From positions 1 to 64,000 of the forward strand of contig JANQPX010000060.1 of the NCBI GenBank assembly GCA_028285265.1: DNA of 64,000 nt, given 5' to 3'. Positions 23,999 through 44,503 of this stretch are shown piece by piece. Below the pieces are notes generated by a model. The model did not search any database, was not told where the DNA came from, and worked only from the letters and a program-made list of their open reading frames with translations. Position 1 is the first letter of the stretch. The number at the start of each line of letters is the position of its first letter. The translations under genes were made by a program, and so were the position numbers. The stretch is from Geminicoccaceae bacterium. GTDB taxonomy: Bacteria; Pseudomonadota; Alphaproteobacteria; Geminicoccales; Geminicoccaceae.

Positions 23999-25339
23999 AT
24001 GGCTCATATCGCGTTTATCACCAATGGCCTCACCGGCTTGCTTTTCGCAAGTTTCGAAATGGTCCGACGCCTTAGGGCTCATGGCCATCACATCACCTAT
24101 TGGGCACCAGAACTGGCCCGAGATGCCGTGATCCGTGAAGGGTTGCCTTTTCACGCCATCCCCGACTTTCAGGCCAAGGGTGTCACTGAAAGCGACATGG
24201 ATCAAATTGCTGAGAACCTAGACACACATTCCCCAGATCTCGCATTGATCGATACAGAGTTGCCAGAAGTCGTCCTGGCGGCCCAAGCCGCTTGCTTGCA
24301 AACCGTACTCCTCAACACCTGGATGTCTATCTGGCAGCATCCAGGCCTACCCCCACTCCACCGCTCTATACAGCCCGGCGTAGGCTGGCATGGTTCAAGC
24401 ATTGGCGTGAACCTTGCGTGGACGAGGCATCGATTGACCCGTCGCATGAAACATATAGTTCGCCGTTGCTGGCATGGTCGCAAATATCGCGTTACGCGGC
24501 TCAGAGCCTATAGTAACAAGATTGGCTTTCCCCATACCAAAGAGTTCGATTTCGACAACTGGCTCCTTCCATTCTCCTTCAGATCCCTTCCGATTTTGAC
24601 TCTGCACGCCCACGAACTCGATTTCCCGCATACCCCGAGGGATCATGTTCACTATGTTGGACCGATGGTGAACCCTAATCGCCAGGAATCGCCATCCCAC
24701 GCCACCGACCTGGCGATCGTCGAAGCCGTCTTGTCGAGACGCCAGTCCAGCAATACACGCCTCATCTACGGTGGATTTGGCTCGCATTTCATTGCGGATG
24801 ACCGTCTTTTGTCGGCGCTTTTCTCGGCATTTTCGGAACAACGCGAATGGGAATTGATCGCGCCGCTTGGCGATAGGGTCTCGAGCATCGATGTTTCGAA
24901 GAAACCCGCCAATGTCCACTTGGTAACATGGGCACCTCAATTGGCATTGCTGCAACATGCAGATGCCGCGATCATTCACGGTGGCATCAACACAATTGAC
25001 GAGTGCATCCACTATAAGACACCGATGTTGGCGTGTTCTGGTGGCATGACTGACATGCCCGGCAACATTGCGAGGGTCGTCCATCATCGGCTTGGTCTTT
25101 CTTACGACGTCCATCGCGACAGCCCTGAAGCGGTCACGAAAAGCCTTGATCGTGTTATGACGGATCCTGACATCAAAGAAAGCCTCAAGGCCCAACAGTC
25201 AGCTGCGGAACGATATGCCAAGGACAAAGTCCTCGAGTGCATCATCGATGGTTTCCTCGAAGGTGACCTCGCATCATCGGCAGGCGTGCTCACGTTATCT
25301 CGTTCAGCTTCGCCGCAAGCCGCTGCGTCCAGGACTTGA
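23999..25339 (+). CDS. UGT-like (GT1 family) glycosyltransferase
   Basis: A 446-residue GT-B fold enzyme. The N-terminus (IAFITNGLTGLLFASFEMVR) starts an acceptor domain. The donor-site motif WAPQLALLQHADAAIIHGG, followed by INTIDECIHYKTPML, is the signature of the UGT/MGT group that glycosylates small lipophilic acceptors such as natural products. It lies between the flippase (opposite strand) and the NRPS operon, and its 3' end overlaps the convergent end of the terminal NRPS gene by 50 bases. This context makes glycosylation of the NRPS product plausible. No clear ribosome site precedes ATG 23999. Confidence 0.85.
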   Translation: MAHIAFITNGLTGLLFASFEMVRRLRAHGHHITYWAPELARDAVIREGLPFHAIPDFQAKGVTESDMDQIAENLDTHSPDLALIDTELPEVVLAAQAACLQTVLLNTWMSIWQHPGLPPLHRSIQPGVGWHGSSIGVNLAWTRHRLTRRMKHIVRRCWHGRKYRVTRLRAYSNKIGFPHTKEFDFDNWLLPFSFRSLPILTLHAHELDFPHTPRDHVHYVGPMVNPNRQESPSHATDLAIVEAVLSRRQSSNTRLIYGGFGSHFIADDRLLSALFSAFSEQREWELIAPLGDRVSSIDVSKKPANVHLVTWAPQLALLQHADAAIIHGGINTIDECIHYKTPMLACSGGMTDMPGNIARVVHHRLGLSYDVHRDSPEAVTKSLDRVMTDPDIKESLKAQQSAAERYAKDKVLECIIDGFLEGDLASSAGVLTLSRSASPQAAASRT

Positions 25340-28300
25340 CGATCGTTAGATCCCGACGAAACGCAATATGCTCACAATAAAAATGCTCCTCGTCATAACG
25401 CCCTTTCGCAAGCTCTTTCCAAAGATAGCGGCAACTTGTGTCGCGACCGAGAAGCGATCGGAACACGAGTAGTCGACCGGAATAAGGCGACAATTCGTGA
25501 CGTTGGATCGCGAAGTTATAAACGATCCAGGCATAATGGGCTGCAGCACCGGGTGAGAGCCTATAACCCAAGCTGTAGGCCAGCGATCCCTGGGCCAGCC
25601 GAAATGGCCCGCGCACATAACGATAGTATTTTCTGACGATGACATTACATGCTCGAACCATCCAGCCCGGCAGAAAACGCTGTCCTATCTCAGGAACGAT
25701 GGATGGACTTGTTAGTTGAGAGGATGTCGTCGAAACAGCTTTGAGCGTGTCTTTGTCGAGTCCGCGAACACGGCCGAGGAAGTCCATATCATCAGGTGGA
25801 TCGAGAAGAAATAGGACCTCAACCTCTTCGCCAGCGGCCAATAGTCGACGCGCCATCTCAACCGAAGCAGCTGCACCGATAGAATAGCCCCCGAGACGAT
25901 AGGGCCCATGCGGCGAGATATTTCGGAGTTGAACAAGATAGTCATCGGCCATGCTGTCAACGGACGTCAAAGGGCTGAGACAGCCGTCATTCCAATGGTC
26001 TTCAAGAAGGTGAACGGCATGATGCTCCCGAAGTGCATCCTCAAGACACTCGCGCATGCGTTCCCCGCCCTGGACCATAAAGAACGTTTTTCTTGGTGAT
26101 GGTCGGCTTTCCTGTTGTTGCTCGAGCGGTGCCTCCATAGACCGTACCAAAGCCTGAATCGTTGGAAACTCGAGGACGCTTGTCGGTTTAACGTCGAGTC
26201 CCTCACGTCTTGCTAACGACACAATCCTGATGCTCGTCAACGAGTCACCGCCCAACGAAAAGAAGTCGTCGTCTATGCCGACCTGCTTGACCTTGAGCAC
26301 TCGCTCCCAAATTCGAACCAAAGCCGTTTCGGTTGGGTTGGTCGGAGGCTGATAGACGTTTCTCGCTTGTTGGACGGTTTGAGTCTCAGCCAGTTTGGTC
26401 AGTTCTTGACGGTCGACTTTGCCATTAGGCAGCATCGGCATCGCCGACAAGGCGATGATCGTTTGCGGGACCATGGCTTCAGGTAGTCGGCTGGCTATGC
26501 CGGGACGGAACGAGCCCACATCATCTCCGCGGTCCTCAACAAAGGCAGTGAGGCGGACACTATTCTCGTTGATTGCTGACGCAATCACTGCCGATGCCGT
26601 TCCAGAAATCGCTGTAAGTACGGCTTCTATCTCAGCAATCTCAACGCGATGCCCCCTCATCTTCAGCTGGCCATCCCGCCTGCCGAGATAGTCAAGTGTC
26701 CCATCCGTCCGCCAACGTGCAACATCGCCGGTTCGATAGAATCGGCCGCCGCTGTCCCCAGGTTCTAGCGGAAAACGCGATGCCGTCATCTCAGGCTTTC
26801 CGAAATACCCTAGCGCGACGCCCGGACCGCCGACCATGATTTCGCCTGGGACGGCAGCAGGTGTCTGACGGCCACGGTGGTCCACCAATTTGATCGCCGT
26901 GCCGGGAATCGGTTGCCCTATTGAGGGCACCTGGTTCGTCGGCATGTCAGTAATGTCCGATACGGTGCACCAAACCGTCGCTTCCGTTGGGCCGTATTCG
27001 TTGATCAGCCTTGCCGCCGGCAAGACCGTCCGGTGGCGCACAGGCAAAGCGGCGGGACATGTTTCGCCAGCGACGATGGCATGGCTCAGCGATGCAAGCT
27101 TCGTTGGGTCGCCATAGTCGATAAGGATCGCATAGAGGGATGGCAAACAGAGCAGATGGGTCACCTGGTATCTATAAATGAGCGCGGTCAGATGCTCGAC
27201 ATTTTGCTCTGAGCGGTGCTGGGCAATAACGAGCGTCCCACCTGTCGATAGAGTCCAGAACAACCCTGCAACGGAACTGTCAAAGGATAGAGATGACATC
27301 AGCAAGAACGCACTCGGCGGCTCGCCATAGTGGCTCAGTCTTGCACCATTGGAATAAGCAAGGTTGGATCGGCTGACGACCACGCCCTTTGGATGTCCAG
27401 TCGAACCTGAGGTGTAGATGATGTAGGCGGGGGTTTCCGGAGGGGGCTTTGATCGGGTCCGCAGTTCCTCAGTGACGGCTTCGATCCGATCCAAATCAAC
27501 CTTGTCGAGTTGATCGAGCGTTTGCGTACTGGCTCCGGCAACGACGACAATGCGCGCCTGGCTGTCCTCGATAATCGCTACGCGCCTGGCGTGAGGATAG
27601 GTCGGATCCAGCGGCACATAGGCAGCACCCGCCATCAAAACAGCAAGGATTCCAACGATAGCTTTCGGGCCACGGTCGACGTGAACAATCACTGGCTCGC
27701 CAAGCTTGACGCCTCGGTCCATCAAGGTTCGGGCTGCGGATTGAGCCGTGTTGACGAGCTCAATGTAGGTTAACTTCTGATCGTGATCAGCAACGGCAAT
27801 GGCGTCTGGATGAAGAGTGGCCATTGCTTCAATCATGTCGACAACATCATCGACAGGATGTTTGAGATCGCCACCATTTCCGCGTCGAGTGAGTTCCTGC
27901 CGCTCAGCGACAGGAAGGTCGTCGATCGTCGCTAAGGTTGCATCAACGTCGCGAGCGATTGCCTTTGCCGTCTCGACAACGGCGATGACCAATTGTTCAC
28001 CAAGACTAATGTCAAATCGCGATGGATCCGTGACCGTGCTGACGACCAGACCTCCCTTGCCATCAGGATCGATCAGCAGGGCAAGCGGAAACGTACTTGG
28101 TGCTTTGATATCCAATGATCGCAGGTGCAATGTTGCACGTTGTCTGTCTTTTGCTGGTGGATAATTTCCGAAGACATAAAGGCAGTCGAATAGAGCCTCA
28201 CCAGGCGGCACATCGCTCCAGCTCTGGATCTGAGAGAGAGGAGCCTGTTCGTGCTGCCGTATCATCGTCGCATCGTCTTGAAGATGCTTCAGAAACGTTC

Positions 28301-29264
28301 GAACGGCATCGTTGTGGTGGATCTTAGCCCGCATCGGTGTTGTCGTGACCAAGAGCCCAATCATTCGCTCAATATCGGGCACATCGTCGGGGCGACCGGA
28401 TGATACGACGCCAAAGACGACATCATCTGCTGACGTGTAACGGCTCAGGACCAGAGCCCATGCGGCTTGAAACAATGTATTTAAGGTGACGCGTGATGAT
28501 GCTGCAGCTGAAACAATCGGACTCAAAACGTCAGCATCGATGCGATGTGACCAATACTCCCGGCGTTCGGATCGTTGGCTTTGATCGCTTGGTCGCGCCG
28601 CATCGATGACGCTTTGGCGCCTAAAGCCCTTGAGATAGCGACGCCAAAACTGCTCGTCAGCGCTAGCATCCCGTCGTAGCAGCCAGGCGATATGGTTACG
28701 ATAAGGAGGCGCTTTTGGGAGCAGCGTGTTGTGGGCATTCGCGCATGACAGAAGTTCCTCAAGTGCAATGCCGATAGACCAGCCATCTGCGATCACATGG
28801 TGGCAGGCCCAGACCATGCGATGATCATCCGCTGCCAACGAAAACACATCAACGCGGCACAGCGGCGCTGCAGCAAGATCAAATCCAACTATGGATTCTT
28901 GCCAGAGCCAGTCATTCAACTTCTTCTCTGATTCGCTTGCCGATAGCGCGGTCCAATCATGATGGCGGACGGGCATTTCAAGGGTCTTACGGACCACTTG
29001 CATCGGTGCGTCGAGCCCTTCCCAAACAAACGCAGTGCGCAGGGCCGGATGACGTGCCAGGACCTCCCTCCAAGCCCGGCGGAACATTTCCATGTCGAGC
29101 TTGCCGCCCAAATGGCAAACAATACGGCCGACATGCATGGTTGTGTCAGGTTTGGCAATTGCGTGAAAAACCATACCTTCCTGGAGCGGCGTCAACGGGT
29201 AGATATCTTCGACATTGTCGAGAGCCGAAGCCGCGGTCTCCTTTTTTAAATCCGACGCCGTCAT
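25290..29264 (-). CDS. Nonribosomal peptide synthetase, C-A-PCP-TE termination module
   Basis: A 1324-residue final module. The condensation domain opens with DIYPLTPLQEGM and has an intact CHHVIADGWS active site. The adenylation domain shows YIIYTSGSTG, INEYGPTEATVW and an RTGD motif. Reading the specificity pocket by eye gives DSACIAEVW plus the invariant Lys, which I cannot assign to an amino acid. The carrier domain has FFSLGGDSL (phosphopantetheine Ser near 1008). A thioesterase fills about 1059-1324 with GGYSIGA (Ser near 1128), FLLDPPDD and a late His in CEHIAF. I chose ATG 29264, ten bases after the upstream NRPS stop, over a TTG at 29303. Last gene of the operon. Confidence 0.93.
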   Translation of the reverse strand: MTASDLKKETAASALDNVEDIYPLTPLQEGMVFHAIAKPDTTMHVGRIVCHLGGKLDMEMFRRAWREVLARHPALRTAFVWEGLDAPMQVVRKTLEMPVRHHDWTALSASESEKKLNDWLWQESIVGFDLAAAPLCRVDVFSLAADDHRMVWACHHVIADGWSIGIALEELLSCANAHNTLLPKAPPYRNHIAWLLRRDASADEQFWRRYLKGFRRQSVIDAARPSDQSQRSERREYWSHRIDADVLSPIVSAAASSRVTLNTLFQAAWALVLSRYTSADDVVFGVVSSGRPDDVPDIERMIGLLVTTTPMRAKIHHNDAVRTFLKHLQDDATMIRQHEQAPLSQIQSWSDVPPGEALFDCLYVFGNYPPAKDRQRATLHLRSLDIKAPSTFPLALLIDPDGKGGLVVSTVTDPSRFDISLGEQLVIAVVETAKAIARDVDATLATIDDLPVAERQELTRRGNGGDLKHPVDDVVDMIEAMATLHPDAIAVADHDQKLTYIELVNTAQSAARTLMDRGVKLGEPVIVHVDRGPKAIVGILAVLMAGAAYVPLDPTYPHARRVAIIEDSQARIVVVAGASTQTLDQLDKVDLDRIEAVTEELRTRSKPPPETPAYIIYTSGSTGHPKGVVVSRSNLAYSNGARLSHYGEPPSAFLLMSSLSFDSSVAGLFWTLSTGGTLVIAQHRSEQNVEHLTALIYRYQVTHLLCLPSLYAILIDYGDPTKLASLSHAIVAGETCPAALPVRHRTVLPAARLINEYGPTEATVWCTVSDITDMPTNQVPSIGQPIPGTAIKLVDHRGRQTPAAVPGEIMVGGPGVALGYFGKPEMTASRFPLEPGDSGGRFYRTGDVARWRTDGTLDYLGRRDGQLKMRGHRVEIAEIEAVLTAISGTASAVIASAINENSVRLTAFVEDRGDDVGSFRPGIASRLPEAMVPQTIIALSAMPMLPNGKVDRQELTKLAETQTVQQARNVYQPPTNPTETALVRIWERVLKVKQVGIDDDFFSLGGDSLTSIRIVSLARREGLDVKPTSVLEFPTIQALVRSMEAPLEQQQESRPSPRKTFFMVQGGERMRECLEDALREHHAVHLLEDHWNDGCLSPLTSVDSMADDYLVQLRNISPHGPYRLGGYSIGAAASVEMARRLLAAGEEVEVLFLLDPPDDMDFLGRVRGLDKDTLKAVSTTSSQLTSPSIVPEIGQRFLPGWMVRACNVIVRKYYRYVRGPFRLAQGSLAYSLGYRLSPGAAAHYAWIVYNFAIQRHELSPYSGRLLVFRSLLGRDTSCRYLWKELAKGRYDEEHFYCEHIAFRRDLTIVKSWTQRLAAKLNEIT

Positions 29265-29274
29265 CGAGTCTCTA

Positions 29275-32200
29275 CTAAGATTCGATCTTGTGCGATGAGC
29301 CAAGCGCTTCTGCTATTGCGCTAAGCCCCTCAGCCCCAAGTCCTGAAAGTGCGAAGGGGGCCGGATCGTTATTGTCCGGGAGAGCTATCGCCGTATCAGC
29401 GTCAGCACTGATCGCAGCAGCTAGTTGGGCAATGGTCTGATGCTGGAAGATTAATGCCGGCGCGAGTTCGACACCGCTCCTTCGTGCGCGGGCGGCAATT
29501 CTTATTGCAGCGATAGAGTCACCACCAAGTTCGTAGTAATTATCGTCCACACCCGGCCGCTCGATACGAAGTATATCTGCCCAAATCGCACAAATCTTTA
29601 CCTCAATCTCAGTCGAAGGCGCCCTGTAGGCACTTGGTTGTGTGTGTGCAACTTTGTCTGGCAGCGGCAGAGCTCCAACGTCAACTTTGCCATTGGTCGT
29701 GAGTGGGATGGCGTCCAGGCACATCACCCGTGACGGAATCATTTCTAGCGGCAGGCATTCCTTCAGCAAGCTTCGTAGATGTGATGCCGGTGTATTGGGG
29801 TCGGATACGACATAGGCAGTGAGTTGCATCTCATTGGACGTCTCAAAGAGATCGTCAGCGTCATAGCCTATATCCTTGAGTATGCGTCGCACCCGTGCGA
29901 CGTCGATATCGTCATTTAATTCATCGAGCGCTGCATCGCGCTCCTTGTGTCCCATGCGAACGTCCCAGGAGTAAGGGAGTGCATAATTGTGGAAGCCTTG
30001 CCGCCTTTTGTGAACGTAGATGCCGACATCATTGATCAGACAATTGGATGACCGACCTGTGTCGTCCGGGCGTCGCCACGGCAGCCGTTCATGCAAGTAA
30101 CGATAGATCTCATCGAGGGATACGTCGCAGTAGCGATAGAAATCAACAAATTGGATTTGCTCAAAGGTGGCATCATCTTTGACGGCTCGAACATCGAGAA
30201 GCTGTGACACGGCGTCATTGGTGCGGTGATAGGCTTTCCGTGCTTCCAGTACCATCGCCTCAATGGCCGCACAGCTTACAGGACCGGACTTAAACAGTTC
30301 GGGTGTCAGACGCGTTTCAAAGAATTGGCCACGCGACAGACCTGTCACGATGATCGGAGCACCGACCTCGATGGCCGTCTGCATGGCGAGCGCGTAGATG
30401 GTCTTGAAGCAACCATTGCAGACATTCGAATGTCGTTTCAGGCTGTCAATAAAGATTGCGTTCATCGCCGCTGTCGACACATAACGATGTTCGACGCCAA
30501 GCAGCTCGGTAACACGTTGGATATTGTCTTTGGCACCGTCGGACAGATAGCCGTTGTCCAAGGTCAATGCGAGAATGCGCGGCCTCATCTCGGCGACTCG
30601 TGCGAGCGCATAGATGCTGTCCTTGCCTCCCGATGTCAAAACGATACAGTCATAGTCGCCGGTCGCCCGATGGTGAGCATCGGTCAAAATGGCGGCCAGG
30701 GCCTCCATATCGCTGAAATAGACATCGGCACGACTCCGATAGCTCTCCAGCTCCCGACAGATTGAACATACCTGGCTTTCGTCGATCGTCGCCTCGGGAT
30801 AGTCGGAAGAAAGGCCGCAGCGCATGCAGTAGACGTCACTTGAGCCAGCCTTGATCGGTCGTTGCTCCTGCGGCGCAGCGTGGGCCAAAACAACAGCGTC
30901 GCTGACACCAGGAAGCTGTGCGAGCGCTTGCTCGATTTCTCCAAGTTCGATCCGTACACCGCGTAATTTGATCTGCCGATCCGACCGACCAAGAAAGTCG
31001 AGTTGTAGACGGTCATTGAACCTCGCGAGATCCCCGGTGCGATAGAGACGCTCGCCCGCATGGAACGGATCGTCGATGAAGCGTTCGTCGGTGAGATCTT
31101 CTCGGCCCACATATCCTCTCGCCAACCGATTGCCACCGATAAAGACCTCGCCAGGAACCCCTTGCGGAACCGGGTTCATACCTGCATCGAGTACATAGAT
31201 CCGCATTCCGTCCGCCGGCGCACCGATCGGCACCGAGACACCAGTATCGTCTCCGGGCTCGAAGCGATGAACCATGCAGCCGATGACCGCTTCTGTCGGT
31301 CCATATTCATTGAAAATAGCGATGTCTCGTCCAAGTCGATCGAGCGCACGCGTTGCCAATTGCGTCCTGAGATCCTCACCCCCAAGAATCAAGGTTCTAA
31401 TCGTTTGTGGAGGACCAGCATGTTCCGCAACAAGCGCAAGATGGGCCGGCGTAAGTTTGACGATATCAACCCTATCCTCGTCGAAGACATCGAGGACTGA
31501 GAGGTCCCCACCCTCCAACGGCTCCTGATAAACAACAACCGACCCACCACTTATCAATGGCAGGAAGAGCGAGGTCAGCGTCAGGTCAAATCCGATCGCC
31601 GTAAATAGCGGCATAGAAACTGCCCTGTTGCGACCGTAGACGGATCCGGCCCATGTGAGATAGGCTGCGAGTGCTCCATGCTCGACCTCGACACCTTTTG
31701 GCTGACCCGTCGATCCAGACGTGTAGATGACGTAGGCCATGTCGGTTGGGTCGGCGATGCGAAATGCAGTCTCCGATGTCCGGCTCGGCGGCGCATCGAC
31801 TTCGAGCACAGGTGCTGCCTGTCCCTCCAAGCGATGAATAAGCGATGGATCCGCGACGATGGCAGCAACTACAGAGTCGGCGACCATGTAAGAAAGCCGG
31901 TCTTGCGGCAAATGAGAGTCAAGGGGAAGGAACGCAGCGCCTGTCTTCATGACGCCCAGAACCGCCACTGGGTAGGCCATCGACCGTCTCATGTGAACGC
32001 CGACGATAGCGCCAGGCCGAACACCCATCGCCTTAAGCTCTGCAGCGATCGCGTCGGACCAATCATTCATGGCCGCGAAGGTGAGCGTCTCTTCTCCGAA
32101 AATCACAGCTGGCACGTCTGCTGATGATAACACAGCCTTTCTGAAGAGAGAGAGCACGGTCTCTTCACCAACGCCGACCGAGGCCGCTCGATTGTACGTT

Positions 32201-33522
32201 TTCAAATGCGCCACTCGCTCCGATTCTGTGACGATCGGAACCGCATCGATTGGCTGATCGAAGTTGTCCAGCATGGCGTTCAGGATGACTACGAAATGGT
32301 CCAAAATGTTCGATCTCAATGGCTCTGGAAAGACACCGCATTTGAGATCCATGGCCAGAACCGGAACACCGTCGCCATTCATATCCATGACGTGCAAGCG
32401 CAAATCATGGCCTGTATCCATGGCTCCGGTCGATAGCCACTCGACTCGGCGCGTCAGCCCGCTGACCTCGGGAAACGCCACGTTGATATAGTTCATTATG
32501 ATGTTGAAGGACCGCGCCGACTCAGCCGACGCAGCACCGGCTTGGCTGAAACGCATGTGCTCCATGTTCGCTGCTGCGACCTTGTCATAAAGCGTATGGA
32601 AGGTCTCACCTTCATCGAGTTCTGCAACGAATGGGAAAACCTCGACGAGCAAGCCGGGTAGCCTCTTCAGGAGAAGCGTCGAGCGGTTGTGCGCCGGCGT
32701 TCCTATGGTGATCTTTCGCTGATCCGTGACACGCGCCAGATAGGCGAAAAGAGCCGTAACAAATAGATTGAAACGCGTAAGATGGATCGAAAAGCTTCGA
32801 ACGCCATCCGTCTGAGATAACGACGTGAGGCTCTCGACTTGCGAATCCGTCAGGGAGCGAACAAGCCTAACAGTCTCCGTGGAGGCCTCAATATTTCGCC
32901 GGTTGTAAGGACGGGGCAATCCAGTTGAGCTTTCAGCAATACGACGCCAATGGTCCGCCGCAGCCTGTCCCTGATCACTCGCTCGAAATTCCTGCTCTTC
33001 AAGGACAAAGTTTTGGAACATCGGGAGTGGATCCGACGGCATAGCCAGACCTGAACGAAGCGCCTCTAAATGCTCGCAAAGGGCTTCGAACAGGACCGCG
33101 ACAGACCATGCATCGGTAACGATGTGATGTTGACTCAAGAAAAAGACCTGATGATTGTCCCCAAGTTTGAGGAGAGCAGCATCGTAACTTGCCCGACCGA
33201 GGTCGAATGGTTTCCTACTTCTTGTCTCGATATGGGATTGAGCTTGTTCCTCGGGATCCGTCAACGAAGATAGGTCAATATGGTCGAGAGGCTTTGGTGC
33301 CTCTGCCGAAACATCTTGGTAGATCCCATTCGGCGTCTCGCGGAAAATCGTACGCAAGACATCCGTACGTTCGACTAACCGCTCGAAGGCTTGCGTAAAG
33401 TGACTTGGGCTAAGCGGCCCAATCAAATCGATACGCCAGGCTTGATTGTAGAGCGGAACATCGCCAGCCAAGGCCTGACCAGTCCAGAACAATTCTTGAC
33501 TTTTAGTGAGCTGACGCGTCAT
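29275..33522 (-). CDS. Nonribosomal peptide synthetase, C-A(Asn)-PCP with inserted WbpG-like PP-loop domain
   Basis: A 1415-residue elongation module. A condensation domain (HHIVTDAWS) covers about 1-440. The A domain follows (AYVIYTSGSTGQPKG, FNEYGPTEA, RTGDLARF, QIKLRGVRIELGEIE). My by-eye pocket code is DLTKIGEIG plus Lys, close to the known asparagine code DLTKLGEVGK. Between A8 and A10 (LTTNGK, about 1279) the domain is interrupted by about 330 residues: CxxC...CxxC (from 899), the PP-loop SGGKDS (964-969), CNGC (1035-1038) and a tail like sugar amidotransferases. A carrier domain follows (YELGGDS, Ser near 1336). ATGA overlap with the carrier gene upstream. Confidence 0.93.
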   Translation of the reverse strand: MTRQLTKSQELFWTGQALAGDVPLYNQAWRIDLIGPLSPSHFTQAFERLVERTDVLRTIFRETPNGIYQDVSAEAPKPLDHIDLSSLTDPEEQAQSHIETRSRKPFDLGRASYDAALLKLGDNHQVFFLSQHHIVTDAWSVAVLFEALCEHLEALRSGLAMPSDPLPMFQNFVLEEQEFRASDQGQAAADHWRRIAESSTGLPRPYNRRNIEASTETVRLVRSLTDSQVESLTSLSQTDGVRSFSIHLTRFNLFVTALFAYLARVTDQRKITIGTPAHNRSTLLLKRLPGLLVEVFPFVAELDEGETFHTLYDKVAAANMEHMRFSQAGAASAESARSFNIIMNYINVAFPEVSGLTRRVEWLSTGAMDTGHDLRLHVMDMNGDGVPVLAMDLKCGVFPEPLRSNILDHFVVILNAMLDNFDQPIDAVPIVTESERVAHLKTYNRAASVGVGEETVLSLFRKAVLSSADVPAVIFGEETLTFAAMNDWSDAIAAELKAMGVRPGAIVGVHMRRSMAYPVAVLGVMKTGAAFLPLDSHLPQDRLSYMVADSVVAAIVADPSLIHRLEGQAAPVLEVDAPPSRTSETAFRIADPTDMAYVIYTSGSTGQPKGVEVEHGALAAYLTWAGSVYGRNRAVSMPLFTAIGFDLTLTSLFLPLISGGSVVVYQEPLEGGDLSVLDVFDEDRVDIVKLTPAHLALVAEHAGPPQTIRTLILGGEDLRTQLATRALDRLGRDIAIFNEYGPTEAVIGCMVHRFEPGDDTGVSVPIGAPADGMRIYVLDAGMNPVPQGVPGEVFIGGNRLARGYVGREDLTDERFIDDPFHAGERLYRTGDLARFNDRLQLDFLGRSDRQIKLRGVRIELGEIEQALAQLPGVSDAVVLAHAAPQEQRPIKAGSSDVYCMRCGLSSDYPEATIDESQVCSICRELESYRSRADVYFSDMEALAAILTDAHHRATGDYDCIVLTSGGKDSIYALARVAEMRPRILALTLDNGYLSDGAKDNIQRVTELLGVEHRYVSTAAMNAIFIDSLKRHSNVCNGCFKTIYALAMQTAIEVGAPIIVTGLSRGQFFETRLTPELFKSGPVSCAAIEAMVLEARKAYHRTNDAVSQLLDVRAVKDDATFEQIQFVDFYRYCDVSLDEIYRYLHERLPWRRPDDTGRSSNCLINDVGIYVHKRRQGFHNYALPYSWDVRMGHKERDAALDELNDDIDVARVRRILKDIGYDADDLFETSNEMQLTAYVVSDPNTPASHLRSLLKECLPLEMIPSRVMCLDAIPLTTNGKVDVGALPLPDKVAHTQPSAYRAPSTEIEVKICAIWADILRIERPGVDDNYYELGGDSIAAIRIAARARRSGVELAPALIFQHQTIAQLAAAISADADTAIALPDNNDPAPFALSGLGAEGLSAIAEALGSSHKIES
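29836..30828 (-). other. PP-loop ATPase domain inserted in an adenylation domain
   Basis: Codons about 899-1229 of the second NRPS. The order of motifs (two CxxC pairs, TSGGKDSIYAL, LDNGYL, VCNGCFK, a GLSRGQFF turn, NCLINDVGIYVHKRRQGFHN, then DVRMGHKERDAAL) matches WbpG/PseA-type N-acetyl sugar amidotransferases of the adenine nucleotide alpha-hydrolase superfamily. The insertion site between A8 and A10 is where methyltransferase domains interrupt A domains elsewhere. The chemistry here (amidation, amidine formation or thiolation of carrier-bound Asn) is unknown. Confidence 0.85.
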
Positions 33523-33752
33523 GCAGTCGTTCGCTTTCCGAGATAGGCGGCAATTGTGTCTACCGATGTAAAGTTCTCGATGACCACATCCTGTGGCGGC
33601 ACTTTCACACTGAACGCCGTTTCGAGATGCATGACCAAGCGCATGACGTTCATCGAATCGAGAAGGCCAGAAAGTAACAGATCGTCATCGTCGCTTATGC
33701 TCTTGCCTGAAAGAAGGTGGTCAACAATGAATGTTCGGATGTGGTCTTTCAT
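33519..33752 (-). CDS. Stand-alone peptidyl/acyl carrier protein
   Basis: A 77-residue carrier protein with the phosphopantetheine site in LLLSGLLDSMNVMRLV (Ser near 33) and the usual four-helix pattern ending in DTIAAYL. Its ATG overlaps the stop of the adenylation gene (ATGA), and its stop overlaps the NRPS start in the same way. This tight coupling argues that it carries the starter unit activated by the adjacent stand-alone adenylation enzyme and hands it to the condensation domain of the next protein. Confidence 0.92.
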   Translation of the reverse strand: MKDHIRTFIVDHLLSGKSISDDDDLLLSGLLDSMNVMRLVMHLETAFSVKVPPQDVVIENFTSVDTIAAYLGKRTTA

Positions 33753-35368
33753 GGTTTTGGCTTTCCATCAAACCTTCGCTCCCTGACGAGATGTCGTAGA
33801 GCGCGGCGATCGATTTTGTCCGTTGCCGTTCGCGGTAAGGTCGGGGCGACGACCACGTGTTCTGGCACGGCATAAGGAGGAAGCCGACGCGCCGCGTCGG
33901 CCTTGACCTCTTCTGAAATGCCTGAATCAAAGCCTGCATTCAACGTCAGGACAGCGGTGATCAAGTCATGACCGTCATCACCTTGAATAAGGATGGCGGC
34001 AACTTCGTCAACGGCGGGATGACATGCGGTAGCGGCTTCCACCTCGTCGAGTTCAATCCGAAAACCACGCAGTTTGATCTGGCGGTCTTGTCGACCCAAA
34101 AATCGAAAGACACCACCGCCCTCATCGACCACGACATCGCCTGTTCGATAAAATAGCTCCGTCACATCGGCTGTCTTACGGCGGACGTAAAATGCCTTAC
34201 TGTCGAGTTCGGGTCGTCGCCAGTAGCCGGCCATCATCGTCGGACTACTCACCAATAACTCGCCGGATTCGCCGCACTTGACTTCTCTGTCGTCGCCATC
34301 CACGACCAACGCCTCAGCGCCGTTCCAGACCTGACCGATCGGTGGCGGGCGATCGTCAGTGATATCGCCCATTTCAATGTGGTGATAGGTGCATTGGTTG
34401 GTCTCGGTAGGACCGTAGGAATTACTAAAGCGAGCTGTCGGTAGCGACGCCATCAGAGCATGGAGGTGTTTTGCCACGAACGGCTCACCAGCAAAAATCA
34501 CCCAGCGAAGTGTACTCAGATCACGCTGATCGAGCACGCCGCCTTGCAAAAGTTGAGTCAAGGCAAAGGGCACGGAGTACCAATGCGTGAGCCGCTCGTC
34601 TTGGATCAGTTTCGACAGGCTTGCCGGCAGCTTCGTGTAGGGCTCAGGGATGATGATCGTACAGGCACCGCGGATCAGGCCACTGACATAGTCGAAGATC
34701 GACATATCAAAATGAAGCGGCGGATGATTGCTTAGCCGATCGCCATGCCGGACCTCGTAAACATCCGCGGCCAGGTTCGCATAGGCGAGACCGCTTTTAT
34801 GCGAGTGCATGATGCCTTTTGGTATGCCGGTCGATCCGGACGTGAAGAGGATATAGGCCAGATCATCCGGATCAACTTTAGACCGCAACAATGGACCGGC
34901 TCGATGTACGTCAGCCCAGCTAATCATAACCGAGGCAAACGACGGGGAATCGTCAGCTCCAATGACGCATTGAAGCCTGCGACATCCATCGCCGCTCTGC
35001 AAAGCCACCTCAAGATCCCTCGCCTTTGGCGGATGAGTAATCACGACATCGATCCCACACTGCTCAATGATCGCCCAGGTACGAGCAGGTGGCGCTGCAG
35101 GATCAAGAGGGACGTAAATGGCACCAGCCTTCAGTACGCCATAGAGTGAGATCACGGATTCGATCGATTTATTGAAGTAGAGCCCTATCCGATCTCCATG
35201 CCGCACCCCCTGCGCCAACAGCGTTGCGCCAAGCCGATCGCTCTGCTCTGCAAGGCCCTCATAAGACAAAATAGCCTTGGCGAATTTCAGCGCGGGCGCC
35301 TGAGGAAATCGCTCAGCCGCTGTGTCCATTGCGGTATCGATGAGCATTGTCACGCTACTTGGTGCCAC
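33749..35368 (-). CDS. Stand-alone amino acid adenylation enzyme (starter loading)
   Basis: A 539-residue adenylation enzyme with no carrier or condensation domain. Core motifs are YILFTSGSTGIPKG, FDMSIFDYVSGLI, NSYGPTETNQ, YRTGD and QIKLRGFRIELDEVE, with the catalytic lysine in TATDKIDRRAL. The pocket read by eye is DMFSIASQC plus Lys. This partly resembles the proline codes of PltF/RedM-type enzymes (D, hydrophobic, F, then A and C in the same places) but is more polar, so the substrate may be proline-like or something else. It starts at GTG 35368, seven bases after the HupE-like gene; ATG 35347 is an alternative. Its substrate likely goes to the adjacent carrier protein. Confidence 0.88.
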   Translation of the reverse strand: MAPSSVTMLIDTAMDTAAERFPQAPALKFAKAILSYEGLAEQSDRLGATLLAQGVRHGDRIGLYFNKSIESVISLYGVLKAGAIYVPLDPAAPPARTWAIIEQCGIDVVITHPPKARDLEVALQSGDGCRRLQCVIGADDSPSFASVMISWADVHRAGPLLRSKVDPDDLAYILFTSGSTGIPKGIMHSHKSGLAYANLAADVYEVRHGDRLSNHPPLHFDMSIFDYVSGLIRGACTIIIPEPYTKLPASLSKLIQDERLTHWYSVPFALTQLLQGGVLDQRDLSTLRWVIFAGEPFVAKHLHALMASLPTARFSNSYGPTETNQCTYHHIEMGDITDDRPPPIGQVWNGAEALVVDGDDREVKCGESGELLVSSPTMMAGYWRRPELDSKAFYVRRKTADVTELFYRTGDVVVDEGGGVFRFLGRQDRQIKLRGFRIELDEVEAATACHPAVDEVAAILIQGDDGHDLITAVLTLNAGFDSGISEEVKADAARRLPPYAVPEHVVVAPTLPRTATDKIDRRALRHLVRERRFDGKPKP

Positions 35369-35375
35369 GGAGGCA

Positions 35376-36590
35376 CTATAGTCCCAATGCGCTCTTTATT
35401 GGTTCATGGATCGGACCCATCACATCGAACGTTCGCTCGACAAACCACAGACCGGCGACGGCGATCATGGCAACGGAACCAGCCTGCAAGACCACCGGCT
35501 TATAAACTGGTAGACGGCGAATCAGATAGAGAAGCGGGAAAGCCGCCATCACAACGATTAACTGCCCTATTTCGACGCCAATGTTGAAACCGGAAAGTGC
35601 AGCCAGAAGAGAGTGGCCTTGTGCTCCTAACGGATCCAGGACGTTGGCGAAGCCGAATCCATGAAACAGGCCGAGAATAAAGACGATTGACCAGGTTTTG
35701 TTTGCGATGAACGGATAAAGATTGTTGAAAGCGGCAATCGCGATCGAAAGCGCGATGACGGCCTCAACCAACATCACGGGTAATCTGACGATGCCAAGCG
35801 CTGCCAGCGTTAACGTGATGGTATGGGCCACCGTGAACAGGGTGACGACCTTCACAACAAACCAGAATGGCTCGCGAAAGCTCGGAGCAGGCGTCCACTT
35901 TCCGGAACGCACGACCATGACGGAGGCAAGAAGCAGCGAGAGAAGGAAGAGAATATGGTCATAGCCGATAGGCACGATGTGGTAGATGCCCTCTCCCACA
36001 AAGCGGCCGAAGATCACCCAACTTGAGACACCGTCGACGTTGAACGATTGCCGACGACGTTCTTCACCAAAAATGAGGGAATGCTGCGCTTCGTTCTCAA
36101 CAATGCCTGCACGCGTATTGCTCTCGATAAGAAGAAGTCCGCGATGATTGCGATCAACCCCGTCAAAGAGAAAACGATAGTCTGCCTCAAGCGTTTCAGG
36201 CGGCCGGTTCAGACTGGGTACGTCAAACTGAACCTGCACGAAGATATCGAAGCCTGCGCCGTCAAAGAACTGATGACCAGTTACCTCAACCGGATGCGCA
36301 ACATCACCGTCGTAAAAGACCAAACGCGGCTGCAAGTATTCATAGACCTGCTGAGCATTCGAATCGAACTCATCCTTGCTAATGGTGCCATTGCCATCGA
36401 CATCAAGTGAGATCGCTTTGTCCAGCTCCTGGAACGGGATTTCGAAGCGTCCGGAAAGGCTTGTTTCGGTTACGTTTAGATAAACATAACTTTCACCTGT
36501 GCTATGGGCCCTCGCTTCACCGGACAGCCCGATAGCCGCGCTGACGATGATGAGCAAGCCTAACATTCGCTTAAACTGACGATAGAGCAC
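35376..36590 (-). CDS. HupE/UreJ-like membrane protein with EF-hand-like motif
   Basis: A 404-residue protein with a signal peptide (cleavage near EARA), a periplasmic region of about 180 residues and six to seven C-terminal helices. The membrane part has the HupE/UreJ_2 hallmarks IGYDHILFLLSL, FTVAHTITL and GLFHGFGFANVL. Several histidines in these motifs could bind metal. The soluble part carries LDVDGNGTISKDEF, an EF-hand calcium-loop pattern. HupE/UreJ relatives are nickel/cobalt permeases or metal-linked accessory proteins. It is placed between the acyl-CoA dehydrogenase (38 bases) and the adenylation gene (7 bases), so it belongs to the NRPS operon. Function there is unknown. Confidence 0.85.
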   Translation of the reverse strand: MLYRQFKRMLGLLIIVSAAIGLSGEARAHSTGESYVYLNVTETSLSGRFEIPFQELDKAISLDVDGNGTISKDEFDSNAQQVYEYLQPRLVFYDGDVAHPVEVTGHQFFDGAGFDIFVQVQFDVPSLNRPPETLEADYRFLFDGVDRNHRGLLLIESNTRAGIVENEAQHSLIFGEERRRQSFNVDGVSSWVIFGRFVGEGIYHIVPIGYDHILFLLSLLLASVMVVRSGKWTPAPSFREPFWFVVKVVTLFTVAHTITLTLAALGIVRLPVMLVEAVIALSIAIAAFNNLYPFIANKTWSIVFILGLFHGFGFANVLDPLGAQGHSLLAALSGFNIGVEIGQLIVVMAAFPLLYLIRRLPVYKPVVLQAGSVAMIAVAGLWFVERTFDVMGPIHEPIKSALGL

Positions 36591-36628: not shown

Positions 36629-37786
36629 TCAGCTCTTGAGGAGCTGCGCGATGATCTGTCTTTGGATGTCGGATGTGCCTGAGTAAATGACGCCGCCGAT
36701 CGCATCACGTAAGTCTCGCTCAATGCCAGTCTCCGAGAGATAGCCTTTGCCACCGTGAATGCGGATCGCATCAAGGCTCGATTCGACGAATGCTTCCGAC
36801 ATATGCAGATTAGCGAGGGCGGCCTCCACGGGACACGACTGGCCCTGGGCCTTCAACCAAGCCGCCTTGTAAAGAAGAAGCTGGGCCGTCTCTAGGCGCA
36901 GCTTCATATTAGCAAGCCGGTTTGACACCGATTGAAACTGATCAATTGGTTGATCGAAGACAATGCGACTGCGGGCAAAACCAACGCAATCGTCAAGCTG
37001 ACGGCGCATTGATCCGACATGGCTTGCAAGAATGAAGCTCCGTTCCCACTCCATTATATGCTGAAAGATGGCGAGCCCCGCTCCCTCGCGACCGAGGCGC
37101 GCCTCCTTTGGTATGCCGCAGTTTTCGAAGATGAACTCGCCCATCGGCGTTGTCCGCAAGCCCATTTTCTGTTGCGGCGGACGACGGATAAACCCTGAGG
37201 TCTCTGCGTCGACCAAAAAGGCCGATATGCCCCATGACCCTCGATCGGGCGCGGTCGAAGCAAAGACCAGGGCTACATCACACGAGGGGCCCAGGCCGAC
37301 ATAGGCCTTAGCACCGTTGAGTACATAACCTCCGTCGATCGGCTCGGCGGTCGTCTTAATACCGGCTGCGTTTGAACCCGCCCCATGTTCTGTCATGCTT
37401 ACGGCTCCAATGATTGAGCCATCGCATAGTCCAGGCAGATAGCGACGTTTTTGATCATCCGTGCCGAATGAGAAGATTGGTTCCTGGACCGCCCAAATCT
37501 GCCCATTGGCCACAAGGGTGAGCCCGTTATCCCGACAGCCATAACCGATCGCTTCTAGAATCAGAATCGATGTCAGGATGTCTCGTCCGCGCCCTCCATA
37601 TTCCTCAGGGATTGATAGGCCAAAAATCCCAAACTCTGCACATTTGCGCCAGTCTTCACGCCAGGTCTCAAGGTTGTCGCTACCGGATTGGTCTCGATGC
37701 ACGAGATCGCGCCCCAGATGTTGGGCCGCGAAACGTTGCGCTTCGTCGCGAAGCGCCAGCTGCTCGTCGCTCCAAGAGAAATCCAT
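36629..37786 (-). CDS. Acyl-CoA dehydrogenase-like flavoprotein of the NRPS operon
   Basis: A 385-residue acyl-CoA dehydrogenase family enzyme. FAD/substrate motifs include GAVSMTEHGAGSNA and RIHGGKGYLSETGIERD. The usual C-terminal base of MCAD-type enzymes (Glu in YEGTS) is replaced by Ser in IYSGTSDIQ (S369). A Glu in EWERSFILA (E248) sits where isovaleryl-CoA dehydrogenase keeps its base. In pyrrole pathways (PltE, RedW) such flavoproteins oxidise prolyl-carrier protein made by a stand-alone A enzyme. Here the first gene of an operon with exactly such an A enzyme and carrier protein, it is a candidate oxidase for the carrier-bound starter. Ordinary fatty or branched acyl-CoA oxidation remains possible. 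Confidence 0.87.
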   Translation of the reverse strand: MDFSWSDEQLALRDEAQRFAAQHLGRDLVHRDQSGSDNLETWREDWRKCAEFGIFGLSIPEEYGGRGRDILTSILILEAIGYGCRDNGLTLVANGQIWAVQEPIFSFGTDDQKRRYLPGLCDGSIIGAVSMTEHGAGSNAAGIKTTAEPIDGGYVLNGAKAYVGLGPSCDVALVFASTAPDRGSWGISAFLVDAETSGFIRRPPQQKMGLRTTPMGEFIFENCGIPKEARLGREGAGLAIFQHIMEWERSFILASHVGSMRRQLDDCVGFARSRIVFDQPIDQFQSVSNRLANMKLRLETAQLLLYKAAWLKAQGQSCPVEAALANLHMSEAFVESSLDAIRIHGGKGYLSETGIERDLRDAIGGVIYSGTSDIQRQIIAQLLKS

Positions 37787-38164: not shown

Positions 38165-39115
38165 CTATTCAGTCGTCAAGCTTAGCCCAAGGGCATGCTC
38201 GATCTCCGCGGCTTGCAACATGCCTCTCGATGAGTGGCCAACGCCTCCTGCAATGACGAGCCTCCAGGAAAATGGCCAATCTCGCGAGCGAGCCAGATCT
38301 CGCGCCATCTCATAGACGAATTGAGCTCGCTCGAACCGGTTGACGCCTTGCCGCATAGCAGCCTCATTGGACACCAGGTTCTTGCGTCCCGTGTCGTCGC
38401 TGCCGACGTAAAGTGTTATTGGAAGATCAAGATAGCCCTGAAGGTCCGGTTCGCTGTTGAGGGCATTAGAAATCTTGCCGAAACCGTAAGGAACGGGCTC
38501 AGTAAGTGATGGAAGCACGTGAACCGATGGGTTCGCAATCAGGATCCGTTCGGCATCAGCAGGCGGAGAATACGCCGAGACCCTTGAAAGGAATTGACCT
38601 CCTGCGGAGTGGCCAAAAAGGAAGTAACGGGCATTCGCATCGCCGAGCCAATGACGCGCCCATGTCACGAGGGCGTCGACCTTATAGCCGGTCCAACGTT
38701 CGCGAGGCTGAACTCGGCCTTTGCGAAAGACACCCGCCCGATGGTAGCGCCAATTGGGAAACGTCTGCTCATCGAAAAGAGGCGCGATCACAGCTAGGCA
38801 AGCCCGATCTGCCAAGGGGCGCGCCCTACGACGCATTTTTGAGGCCTTTCTGCCCTTACCGTGAAAGACCAGCAGAAGGCTAGGCGAAGCGCAGTGTTGC
38901 GGACGATAGGTGAAAACTGAGATGACGTCATTGCCGAGCTTGACCTCGAATTGGTCATGGCCTGAATCCCGCGCGAGAACGGACGACGTCATCAACGACA
39001 AGATGAGTGCGAGTAACAAGCCCACCCAAGTCATCGTCACCACGGGCGCCAATGAAGCGTGATATCCAGGGGCGAAACCACCAAAAGCTCCCATCTTCCA
39101 GCAGCTCTGGTTCAT
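38165..39115 (-). CDS. Alpha/beta hydrolase with N-terminal membrane anchor or signal
   Basis: A 316-residue alpha/beta hydrolase. LLLVFHGKGR gives the oxyanion region, YFLFGHSAGGQFLSR the nucleophile elbow (Ser), and VGHSSRG near the end the probable catalytic His. A hydrophobic segment (about 24-48: PVVTMTWVGLLLALILSLMT, then SSVLA) suggests export to the periplasm or membrane anchoring. The overall pattern resembles polymer or peptide ester hydrolases but I cannot assign a substrate. The ATG overlaps the stop of the cyanophycin synthetase-like gene (ATGA), so it is the last gene of the exporter operon. It could trim or hydrolyse the exported product. Confidence 0.85.
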   Translation of the reverse strand: MNQSCWKMGAFGGFAPGYHASLAPVVTMTWVGLLLALILSLMTSSVLARDSGHDQFEVKLGNDVISVFTYRPQHCASPSLLLVFHGKGRKASKMRRRARPLADRACLAVIAPLFDEQTFPNWRYHRAGVFRKGRVQPRERWTGYKVDALVTWARHWLGDANARYFLFGHSAGGQFLSRVSAYSPPADAERILIANPSVHVLPSLTEPVPYGFGKISNALNSEPDLQGYLDLPITLYVGSDDTGRKNLVSNEAAMRQGVNRFERAQFVYEMARDLARSRDWPFSWRLVIAGGVGHSSRGMLQAAEIEHALGLSLTTE

Positions 39116-41403
39116 GGCAGCCCTGAAACTGCGGCTGCCGGGTTTGGCCGCCCCTCGCGTTTAATGGTCGGGACCAAGGCCGGAGCCTGGCCGATCGCCT
39201 GCTCAAGCTCACTCACCTGCAGTCCCAGTCCATGAGCGAGGGCGAGCGCAAACATCCTCGCCTCGATTGAGCGCTTTTGTGGACGTCTAGGACTTGGTCG
39301 GCCGGTGTCTCCAGTTGGCAGCGTTAGGATCGGCTCGCCCGCCTCAATCAAGACAATTTGCTCCTGGTCCTCGCGCCAACGAGTCACGATGGCAGGCCCA
39401 CCCTCGGCAAGATGCCGTTCGAGGGTATTCCCCTGCCGACGAGGCGTAACGAGAATGACACGCGATGCCTCAACCATACGGACTGCGTCAAGGGCAAGCA
39501 CATCGTCCGCACTGACCACGATATGTCCCAAGGTTGCGCGGATCAGCACATCCATTCCCTTGCGAAACAAGTCGACGTCACCGTCGACATTTCGGCTTGT
39601 TATCGCGGAACTCTGGCAAGTTTCCAGCTGCATGCCGCGTTTAACGATCTGCCGAAGCGAAACAGCGCCGACAAGGGCTTCGATTCGTGGATCATGAATC
39701 AAAAGTCCAAGCGAACGACGCCGGCGTGAGTCGGGGATGTCGAGCGCTTCACCATTAATAAAGGCTCCATGACGAGTGACCAAACCGACGGAACGTCGAT
39801 TGCCACGAAGAAGACCGTCAAGCTCACGGGCGATCCGTCCAGTGCCCCGGTCCCCGGCGATCAAACTTGCGGGGATCTGCACCTCGGCTCGCCCCTTGAG
39901 AAGATGAGCCAAGACCGTCGGCGCGAGGCCGTCCCGCTTGCTGTGTCGAGGCCACAGATAGCCGTGAAGTTCCGGTTCGGCATTGATTTTCATAATCGTG
40001 CCGACTCCGACCTTGTATGATCTGCTGATATCCGTCGTTACAAAATCGATGCTGATGAAATCTTGATCCAGGACTTTCCCGACACGCTCCGCAAGCATTC
40101 GATTGTCGTGATGGACTTCATCCGTGACGTCAATCGCTGCGCCACCGGCTGAAATCGACGGGCTAGATCGGAGCGAAACAACCCTGCCGGCTGGCAAAAC
40201 GTCGTCAAGTCTTACACCCTGCTTGCCGAGATGATTGATGAGATCATCATCGATAGGCACCTGCATCATTCTGAAGTCATCACGGAAGGGATCGCGATTG
40301 AGCTGGCGGATCAGATCCTTGGTTGTACCTTCTCCGTCTCCTTCAATGATCGGTGGCATGCGCCTTACAGCAGCAGTGTAGCTTCCATCGATCACCAGAA
40401 GACTAAAGTCTTGGCCACCAAAACCACCGTCAACCGACCTGTCTTCCCTTGGTGTCTCAGTTTGGTCTGCAACACTGATGATACGGGCACTGGCATCGAT
40501 CGGAGACGGTCTTTGGTCATGTCTCGCAGGACCAGGCAGGTTGACCAAGACTCCGGCCCGTGCCGGTTCCAAGCTGTCGGCAACCTGCCGCTCTAATGCT
40601 GGCCTATATTGTTGCGGCACTGGCAACCCGACATCCGCCAGTCGCTGCATCACGTCGTTACTATCATCAGTAAGACCAACGGCGTTGATGGATGTGCTGA
40701 CGGCAATCGTGCGTTGTAAGGCGCCTTGGCCCAAACGCAGACGATCCCCGCCAAGGACCTGACAAGCTATTCCCTGCCCTAGCGCAGCTGCGGCCAGTGC
40801 TGCAGCGCCGGCTGTGGGACGTCGGCGGCGGACGCGCCGTCTAAGCTTTGCAAACTGATCCTCTAAGGCGCTCACGTCCAGACTTGGCATCTTAGAATAG
40901 TGAGCGGGCAAAAGTGCGATGACACCAGCCAATCCAATTTCGGCAACTTGGCGCGAGGTGTTGGGGCTGTTGCTCGGCCAGATAAGCGCCGTCTGCCGCG
41001 CGATGTCCACCGGCTCAATCATGCCGAAGATCTCGGCATCGAGCCGCCCCCGTTCGAACGCCAGTGTGGCCTCAAGGGCCATGATCGCTTCGAGAACAGC
41101 CTCCTCGATAGCCACTCCCGGAGGCTCGCTCAATCGTTGGAAAAAGTCTCTGGAAAAGTCGCCATTCGGCAAAGCCCGCCTCAGTGTGCGAAAACTCTCG
41201 ATGAATTGCTCGGCAAAACCGGAACCAATCTCCCCACTACGCAATGCATGCAGGCTTCCGAAGTCAAACGTTTGACGGACGACAGTCGACGTATGATAGG
41301 GATTACGCCCTCGAAGCACCGTACGAGTCAAAAGCTTGACGGGTTCGCTTTGGCGATGGGTGTCCGGCTCCACGGTCTCTTCGTCTTCTTGCCATTGGGC
41401 CAC
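39112..41403 (-). CDS. Cyanophycin synthetase-like protein with degenerate ATP-grasp (predicted pseudoenzyme)
   Basis: A 763-residue paralogue of the divergent gene at 46.2-48.5 kb. The N-terminal CphA-like domain (VLRGRNPYHTSTVVRQ) and the SISAGGAAIDVTDEVHHDN block are kept. The ATP-grasp site is damaged: the lysine/glycine loop reads GVLVNLPGPARHDQR where the partner has VVVKPQKGSRGAG, and the metal-site Glu-x-Asn is KINAEPE rather than EINSRPG. The Mur-ligase P-loop is also lost (LIAGDRGTGRI). The reading frame is intact, so it is not a decaying pseudogene. A structural or regulatory partner role is likely. It lies 4 bases after the HlyD-like gene. Confidence 0.85.
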   Translation of the reverse strand: MAQWQEDEETVEPDTHRQSEPVKLLTRTVLRGRNPYHTSTVVRQTFDFGSLHALRSGEIGSGFAEQFIESFRTLRRALPNGDFSRDFFQRLSEPPGVAIEEAVLEAIMALEATLAFERGRLDAEIFGMIEPVDIARQTALIWPSNSPNTSRQVAEIGLAGVIALLPAHYSKMPSLDVSALEDQFAKLRRRVRRRRPTAGAAALAAAALGQGIACQVLGGDRLRLGQGALQRTIAVSTSINAVGLTDDSNDVMQRLADVGLPVPQQYRPALERQVADSLEPARAGVLVNLPGPARHDQRPSPIDASARIISVADQTETPREDRSVDGGFGGQDFSLLVIDGSYTAAVRRMPPIIEGDGEGTTKDLIRQLNRDPFRDDFRMMQVPIDDDLINHLGKQGVRLDDVLPAGRVVSLRSSPSISAGGAAIDVTDEVHHDNRMLAERVGKVLDQDFISIDFVTTDISRSYKVGVGTIMKINAEPELHGYLWPRHSKRDGLAPTVLAHLLKGRAEVQIPASLIAGDRGTGRIARELDGLLRGNRRSVGLVTRHGAFINGEALDIPDSRRRRSLGLLIHDPRIEALVGAVSLRQIVKRGMQLETCQSSAITSRNVDGDVDLFRKGMDVLIRATLGHIVVSADDVLALDAVRMVEASRVILVTPRRQGNTLERHLAEGGPAIVTRWREDQEQIVLIEAGEPILTLPTGDTGRPSPRRPQKRSIEARMFALALAHGLGLQVSELEQAIGQAPALVPTIKREGRPNPAAAVSGLP

Positions 41404-41407
41404 AGCG

Positions 41408-44496: not shown

Positions 44497-44503
44497 GGGA
44501 TCT

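What the first reader, a model, noticed from the sequence alone, without database searches (positions are those of the whole stretch)
29836..30828. Asparagine-type adenylation domain interrupted by a WbpG-like PP-loop ATPase
Between A8 and A10 of the second NRPS, about 330 residues insert with two CxxC pairs, SGGKDS, CNGC and a C-terminal tail like WbpG/PseA N-acetyl sugar amidotransferases. A domains interrupted at this site by methyltransferases are well known, but I know of no described PP-loop example. PP-loop enzymes make amidines, thioamides or amides from activated acyl groups, so the insert may tailor carrier-bound asparagine (for example to an amidine, nitrile-like or thio form). The reading frame is clean and the flanking A motifs are present.
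Basis: partly seen in the sequence, partly recalled or inferred. Interest (0 to 1): 0.88.

Follow-up and report, generated by a model that had tools for sequence, protein, structure and literature searches.

The report
Asparagine-dehydrating domain inside NRPS module
A peptide-building enzyme carries, spliced into its asparagine-loading domain, an ATP-using domain of a type already shown in the antibiotic enzyme CysH to turn bound asparagine into a nitrile; the domain itself is known, but here it sits in an apparently undescribed, metal-transport-linked gene cassette found across many bacterial phyla, and it carries cysteines that point to an overlooked iron-sulfur cluster.

Summary
ORF 29275-33522(-) is C-A-T with about 340 residues inserted in frame between A8 and A9 of an asparagine-coded A domain; the insert is a WbuX-like PP-loop (AANH-fold) domain. 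All 80 best relatives show the same arrangement, so it is not an artefact. The claim that no PP-loop example is described is wrong. This is the AMDH (aminomutase/amide dehydratase) domain of CysH (cystobactamid, 2021) and AlbIV (albicidin, 2015); it is 54% identical to the AMDH of a cystobactamid-like Corallococcus cluster. CysH dehydrates carrier-bound Asn to beta-cyanoalanine, mostly when the hydroxylase CysJ is absent; the window and the 79 other relatives lack a CysJ-like gene nearby, so nitrile formation is the best prediction. Two points go beyond the literature I could read. (1) The domain carries an invariant CXXC-C cysteine triad that WbuX lacks and that aligns with the [4Fe-4S] ligands of LarE; this could explain why CysH is brown. 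(2) The module sits in a cassette (prolyl A, carrier protein, prolyl dehydrogenase, HupE, His-coded NRPS, sometimes a TonB receptor) shared by many phyla. Predicted product: pyrrolyl-cyanoalanyl-histidine, possibly a metallophore. Both points are inferences.

The parts
29275..33522 (-). NRPS, 1415 aa, C-A(AMDH)-T, Asn module
29836..30864 (-). AMDH (PP-loop, WbuX-like) insert, about residues 887-1229, between A8 and A9 in the A subdomain
30757..30828 (-). CxxC (899/902) and CxxC (919/922), tetracysteine knuckle shared with WbuX; zinc site in LpNASAT
30616..30633 (-). PP-loop SGGKDS, residues 964-969
   Evidence: invariant in 81/81 inserts
30409..30420 (-). CNGC, C1035 and C1038: first two cysteines of the CXXC-C triad, aligned with LarE [4Fe-4S] ligands
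30040..30042 (-). C1161 (RSSNC): third cysteine of CXXC-C
30958..30996 (-). A8 motif FLGRSDRQIKLRG, upstream flank of the insert
29680..29700 (-). A10 motif TTNGKVD with catalytic Lys, downstream flank of the insert
25290..29303 (-). partner NRPS, C-A-T-TE; A code DSALIAEVW = His type
33519..33752 (-). stand-alone carrier protein, 77 aa, PltL-like position
   Evidence: tblastn homologue in 63/80 loci, mostly just upstream of the NRPS
33749..35368 (-). stand-alone A domain, putative L-prolyl (PltF/RedM-like)
35376..36590 (-). HupE_UreJ_2 membrane protein, putative metal transporter; 46/81 loci
36629..37786 (-). prolyl-carrier dehydrogenase of the acyl-CoA dehydrogenase fold (PigA/RedW-like); 41/81 loci
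23999..25339 (+). MGT/UGT-like glycosyltransferase, 26/81 loci

Best explanation
The insert is an AMDH domain. Steps: (1) the surrounding A domain adenylates L-Asn and loads it on the T domain. (2) The PP-loop domain uses ATP to adenylate the side-chain amide oxygen of T-bound Asn, and loss of AMP gives the nitrile beta-cyanoalanine; a [4Fe-4S] cluster held by C1035, C1038 and C1161, with one open iron, probably takes part as Lewis acid or through a bound sulfide. (3) The C domain of the module joins this residue to a proline-derived acyl group (pyrrole- or pyrroline-2-carbonyl) made on the stand-alone carrier protein by the prolyl A domain and the dehydrogenase. (4) The partner C-A-T-TE adds His and releases a small peptide, roughly pyrrolyl-cyanoalanyl-histidine, perhaps glycosylated. 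HupE, and TonB receptors in Bacteroidota, suggest that it is a metallophore. Shown here: anatomy, homology to a CysH-type AMDH, conserved cysteines, conserved cassette. Shown by others for CysH: Asn loading and dehydration. Inferred: the reaction in this protein, the Fe-S cluster, the product, the metal role. Confidence by step: AMDH identity 0.95, dehydration as main reaction 0.65-0.7, Fe-S cluster 0.75, metallophore 0.4.
For: 54% identity over 351 residues (BLASTP 2e-141) to the insert of the A-AMDH-T protein in L088, whose neighbours (chorismate-binding PabB-like, O-methyltransferase, A-T-C-A-T-TE NRPS, TauD-type oxygenase) match a cystobactamid cluster. CysH AMDH dehydrates Asn (+96 instead of +114 Da), not seen without the domain, and makes nitrile mainly when CysJ is absent (PMC7966384). 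Only L088 of the 81 loci has a CysJ-like gene nearby. The Asn code is kept in the inserts whose code was read. AANH fold: AF2 pLDDT 88, best PDB matches LpNASAT 8wex, TtuA, [4Fe-4S] LarE. C1035/C1038/C1161 are in 81/81 inserts but essentially absent from 25 stand-alone WbuX proteins; the triad aligns with LarE CXXC-C, which binds [4Fe-4S] in T. maritima LarE (PMC9283937). Purified CysH is dark brown. Cassette counts; His code from PMC12283262.
Against: No product is known for any cassette of this type in the papers I could search. CysH can also isomerise Asn, so nitrile is not certain. LarE and TtuA use their clusters for sulfur transfer, so thioamide formation is not excluded. Placement of C1161 on the third LarE cysteine rests on a global profile alignment; the local alignment ends before it. 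One of the six patterns used to find the loci was NVCNGCFK, so the 81/81 figure for C1035 and C1038 is partly selected (not for C1161, nor for L003, found by a separate search). The metal role rests on gene neighbourhood.
Confidence: 0.7

Rival explanations
1. The insert thiolates Asn (side chain or backbone amide) to a thioamide, using the CXXC-C [4Fe-4S] cluster as LarE and TtuA do, giving a soft copper ligand.
For: CXXC-C triad as in LarE; fold matches TtuA and LarE; a thioamide would fit a metallophore cassette.
Against: The CysH-like protein L088 has the same invariant residues, and CysH dehydrates Asn rather than thiolating it (PMC7966384). No sulfur-carrier or desulfurase gene stood out among the recurrent neighbours.
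Confidence: 0.12
2. The insert acts mainly as an aminomutase, giving isoasparagine.
For: AMDH of CysH also makes isoAsn and hydroxy-isoAsn.
Against: In CysH the mutase product is minor without CysJ, and no CysJ-like gene lies near the window gene or the 79 other relatives.
Confidence: 0.1
3. The insert is an ammonia-using amidotransferase like WbpG/PseA, making an amidine.
For: Full-length WbuX match and 8wex as the best fold match.
Against: Score is half the WbuX cut-off; the inserts form their own branch apart from WbuX; they have a cysteine triad WbuX lacks; no glutaminase stood out among the recurrent neighbours.
Confidence: 0.04
4. The insert is degenerate or structural and Asn passes unchanged.
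For: None found.
Against: About 70 invariant columns, including the PP-loop and seven cysteines, across many phyla.
Confidence: 0.02

Closest known systems
AMDH domain of CysH (cystobactamid) and its homologue in AlbIV (albicidin)
   Same: PP-loop insert in an Asn-coded A domain, SGGKDS motif; 54% identity to a CysH-like protein, which has the same cysteine triad
   Different: CysH and AlbIV are stand-alone A-T modules in antibiotic clusters with a hydroxylase and trans loading; here the module has its own C domain, works in line, and sits in a different cassette
WbuX/WbpG/PseA N-acetyl sugar amidotransferases (LpNASAT, 8wex)
   Same: tetracysteine knuckle, PP-loop, overall fold
   Different: no CXXC-C triad; free-standing; sugar substrate; ammonia ligation
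LarE / TtuA [4Fe-4S] sulfur transferases
   Same: PP-loop followed by CXXC-C
   Different: different substrates; sulfur insertion; low overall sequence similarity
A domains interrupted by methyltransferases
   Same: enzyme domain inserted in the A subdomain near A8-A9 (own knowledge)
   Different: unrelated fold and chemistry
PltF/PltE/PltL-type pyrrole starter
   Same: prolyl A, dehydrogenase and small carrier protein together
   Different: feeds an Asn(AMDH)-His line with HupE; pyrrole versus pyrroline not determined

Membership tests
AMDH domain (CysH/AlbIV) | inserted in an A domain with Asn specificity | tested here: met
AMDH domain (CysH/AlbIV) | ATP-binding SGGKD motif | tested here: met
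   residues 964-969
AMDH domain (CysH/AlbIV) | full-length sequence homology to a CysH-type domain | tested here: met
   54% identity over 351 aa to L088, identified as cystobactamid-like by its neighbours; the deposited CysH and AlbIV sequences themselves were not compared
AMDH domain (CysH/AlbIV) | dehydrates or isomerises carrier-bound Asn | not testable with these tools
   needs purified protein
WbuX N-acetyl sugar amidotransferase (TIGR03573) | score over curated cut-off of 203 bits | tested here: not met
   96-101 bits
[4Fe-4S] PP-loop enzymes (LarE/TtuA type) | CXXC-C triad after the PP-loop | tested here: met
   third Cys by global profile alignment
[4Fe-4S] PP-loop enzymes (LarE/TtuA type) | bound cluster | not testable with these tools
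   CysH reported dark brown (PMC7966384)
metallophore cluster | chelating peptide with uptake genes | tested here: inconclusive
   HupE in 46/81 and TonB receptor in 21/81 loci; metal and product unknown

The most novel reading that the evidence does not exclude
AMDH domains are [4Fe-4S] enzymes of the LarE/TtuA type built into NRPS modules, and the window belongs to a large, apparently undescribed family of Pro-Asn*-His cassettes, spread across many phyla, that make nitrile- (or thioamide-) bearing metallophores taken up with HupE and TonB receptors.
Probability: 0.35. Interest if true: 0.78.

Novelty: new member of a known kind. Interest (0 to 1): 0.52.

Why it matters
How AMDH domains turn an amide into a nitrile was left open in 2021, with a brown protein and no recognised metal site. 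The CXXC-C alignment gives a direct test: remove three named cysteines. The cassette also suggests that the main natural use of AMDH is not in gyrase inhibitors but in a widespread small peptide that may carry metal.

Tried and rejected
Frameshift or two-gene artefact: rejected. Plain WbuX membership: rejected. Thioamide as first choice: my own leading idea after the cysteine analysis, demoted once CysH was found to dehydrate Asn and a CysH-like protein to have the same cysteines. Paper searches for PP-loop plus NRPS terms found nothing; the precedent surfaced only through the His-code search. Searches for a published cassette of this type or for Fe-S in AMDH found none, but most subscription papers are not held. 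The deposited CysH and AlbIV sequences were not fetched; L088 served in their place.

Full report
What is there. ORF 29275-33522 on the minus strand encodes one uninterrupted 1415-residue NRPS: condensation domain 4-436, A domain from 461, carrier domain 1309-1371. In the A subdomain, between A8 (843-855) and A9 (1257-1264), about 340 residues are inserted. They match WbuX (TIGR03573) at E=3e-27 over residues 898-1208, well under that family's cut-off. The A3, A5, A7, A8 and A10 motifs, with the A10 lysine, are present and conserved in relatives, so the A domain should be active. Base composition does not change across the insert.

Not an artefact, not rare. A scan of one genome per species gave 195 relatives, of which the best 80 were kept. 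All 80 lie inside NRPS ORFs, and where the downstream part is present the insert is mostly followed by A10-like and carrier motifs at regular spacing. They come from Cyanobacteria, Bacteroidota, Rhodothermota, Actinomycetota, Chloroflexota, Acidobacteriota, Verrucomicrobiota, Planctomycetota, Gemmatimonadota, Nitrospirota, Myxococcota and Pseudomonadota. A separate search found one more in G031.

What it is. Gross et al. 2021 (PMC7966384) described a domain inserted in the Asn-activating CysH of cystobactamid biosynthesis, 69% identical to that of AlbIV in albicidin biosynthesis, named it AMDH, and reported numerous homologues, all in Asn-type A domains, without known products. PMC12283262 ties the code DLTKIGEVGK to beta-cyanoalanine and reports the 342-residue AlbIV insert. 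Of 76 insert-bearing A domains read here, 55 have DLTKIGEVG, 14 DLTKVGEVG and the rest near variants or a cut code; the window has DLTKIGEIG. Among my loci, L088 (Corallococcus) has a chorismate-binding enzyme, an O-methyltransferase, an A-T-C-A-T-TE NRPS, the A-AMDH-T protein and a TauD-family oxygenase in a row, which is what a cystobactamid cluster looks like; its insert is 54% identical to the window's.

What it does. CysH dehydrates bound Asn to beta-cyanoalanine, and does not without the domain; isomerisation is favoured when CysJ first hydroxylates the Asn. A CysJ-like gene occurs near none of the loci but L088, so dehydration is the best guess for the window. ATP-dependent amide-to-nitrile conversion through an AMP-imidate is the mechanism proposed for other nitrile synthetases (PMC13060819), and QueC is among the Pfam matches of 39 of 40 inserts.

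A cysteine triad. The insert family shares the four-cysteine knuckle with WbuX; in LpNASAT this binds zinc (PMC10607449). It also has C1035, C1038 and C1161 in 81 of 81 sequences, while 25 stand-alone WbuX proteins show other residues at these places, with a single Cys at the third. The PDB profile search and HHalign put C1035/C1038 on the CxxC of LarE, and a global HHalign puts C1161 (WRRPDDTGRSSNCLIN) on the third cysteine (WNKP..CLSSR). In T. maritima LarE this CXXC-C motif binds a [4Fe-4S] cluster with an open iron (PMC9283937). Gross et al. saw a dark brown CysH, looked for CxxCxxxC only and left the metal open. I predict a [4Fe-4S] cluster in AMDH domains (about 0.75). Caveat: one search pattern contained CNGC, so part of the 81/81 is selected; C1161 and L003 are not affected. 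The AF2 model of the insert (pLDDT 88, pTM 0.87) matches LpNASAT best, then TtuA, the thiolase YcfA and [4Fe-4S] LarE.

The cassette. Directly upstream of the NRPS, in the same orientation, are a 77-residue carrier protein overlapping its start (33519-33752), a stand-alone A domain, HupE_UreJ_2 and a PigA/RedW-like dehydrogenase; downstream is a C-A-T-TE NRPS with code DSALIAEVW, a His code. Across the loci: carrier protein 63/80, HupE 46/81, dehydrogenase 41, ornithine cyclodeaminase-like 27, glycosyltransferase 26, TonB receptor 21 (many contigs are short). In 40 relatives HupE_UreJ_2 occurs about 0.6 times per genome, and the only copy in G031 lies about 8 kb from its AMDH gene, so the link is far above chance. 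A Pro-Asn*-His peptide resembles the Cu/Ni-binding N-terminal X-X-His arrangement (own knowledge); with HupE and TonB receptors this suggests a metallophore (about 0.4). The substrate of the stand-alone A domain is inferred from its company and a weak code. I found no paper on such a cassette in the open library.

Verdict. Observation confirmed; interpretation partly right; the domain is already known; the cassette and the cysteine triad are what deserve a second look.

Noticed in passing
38165-48510: Next to the cassette: type I secretion ABC and HlyD genes (42769-44496, 41408-42772), two cyanophycin-synthetase-like ATP-grasp proteins (39112-41403 minus, 46105-48510 plus) and an ORF without Pfam match (44504-45739). 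Looks like a separate peptide-making and export locus.
   Followed up: no
35376-36590: The HupE_UreJ_2 protein has an EF-hand-like DVDGNGTISKDEF in its N-terminal part.
   Followed up: no
L075:11486-11938: Small His-rich protein of about 150 aa between the AMDH NRPS and the TonB receptor in flavobacterial cassettes; no Pfam match.
   Followed up: partly
L043:4500-18475: AMDH-bearing NRPS in a Gemmatimonadaceae contig followed by a 3153-aa NRPS with other A codes; a third type of context besides cystobactamid and the HupE cassette.
   Followed up: no
15298-18339: 1013-aa protein with only a weak transglycosylase match (E=3e-9).
   Followed up: no
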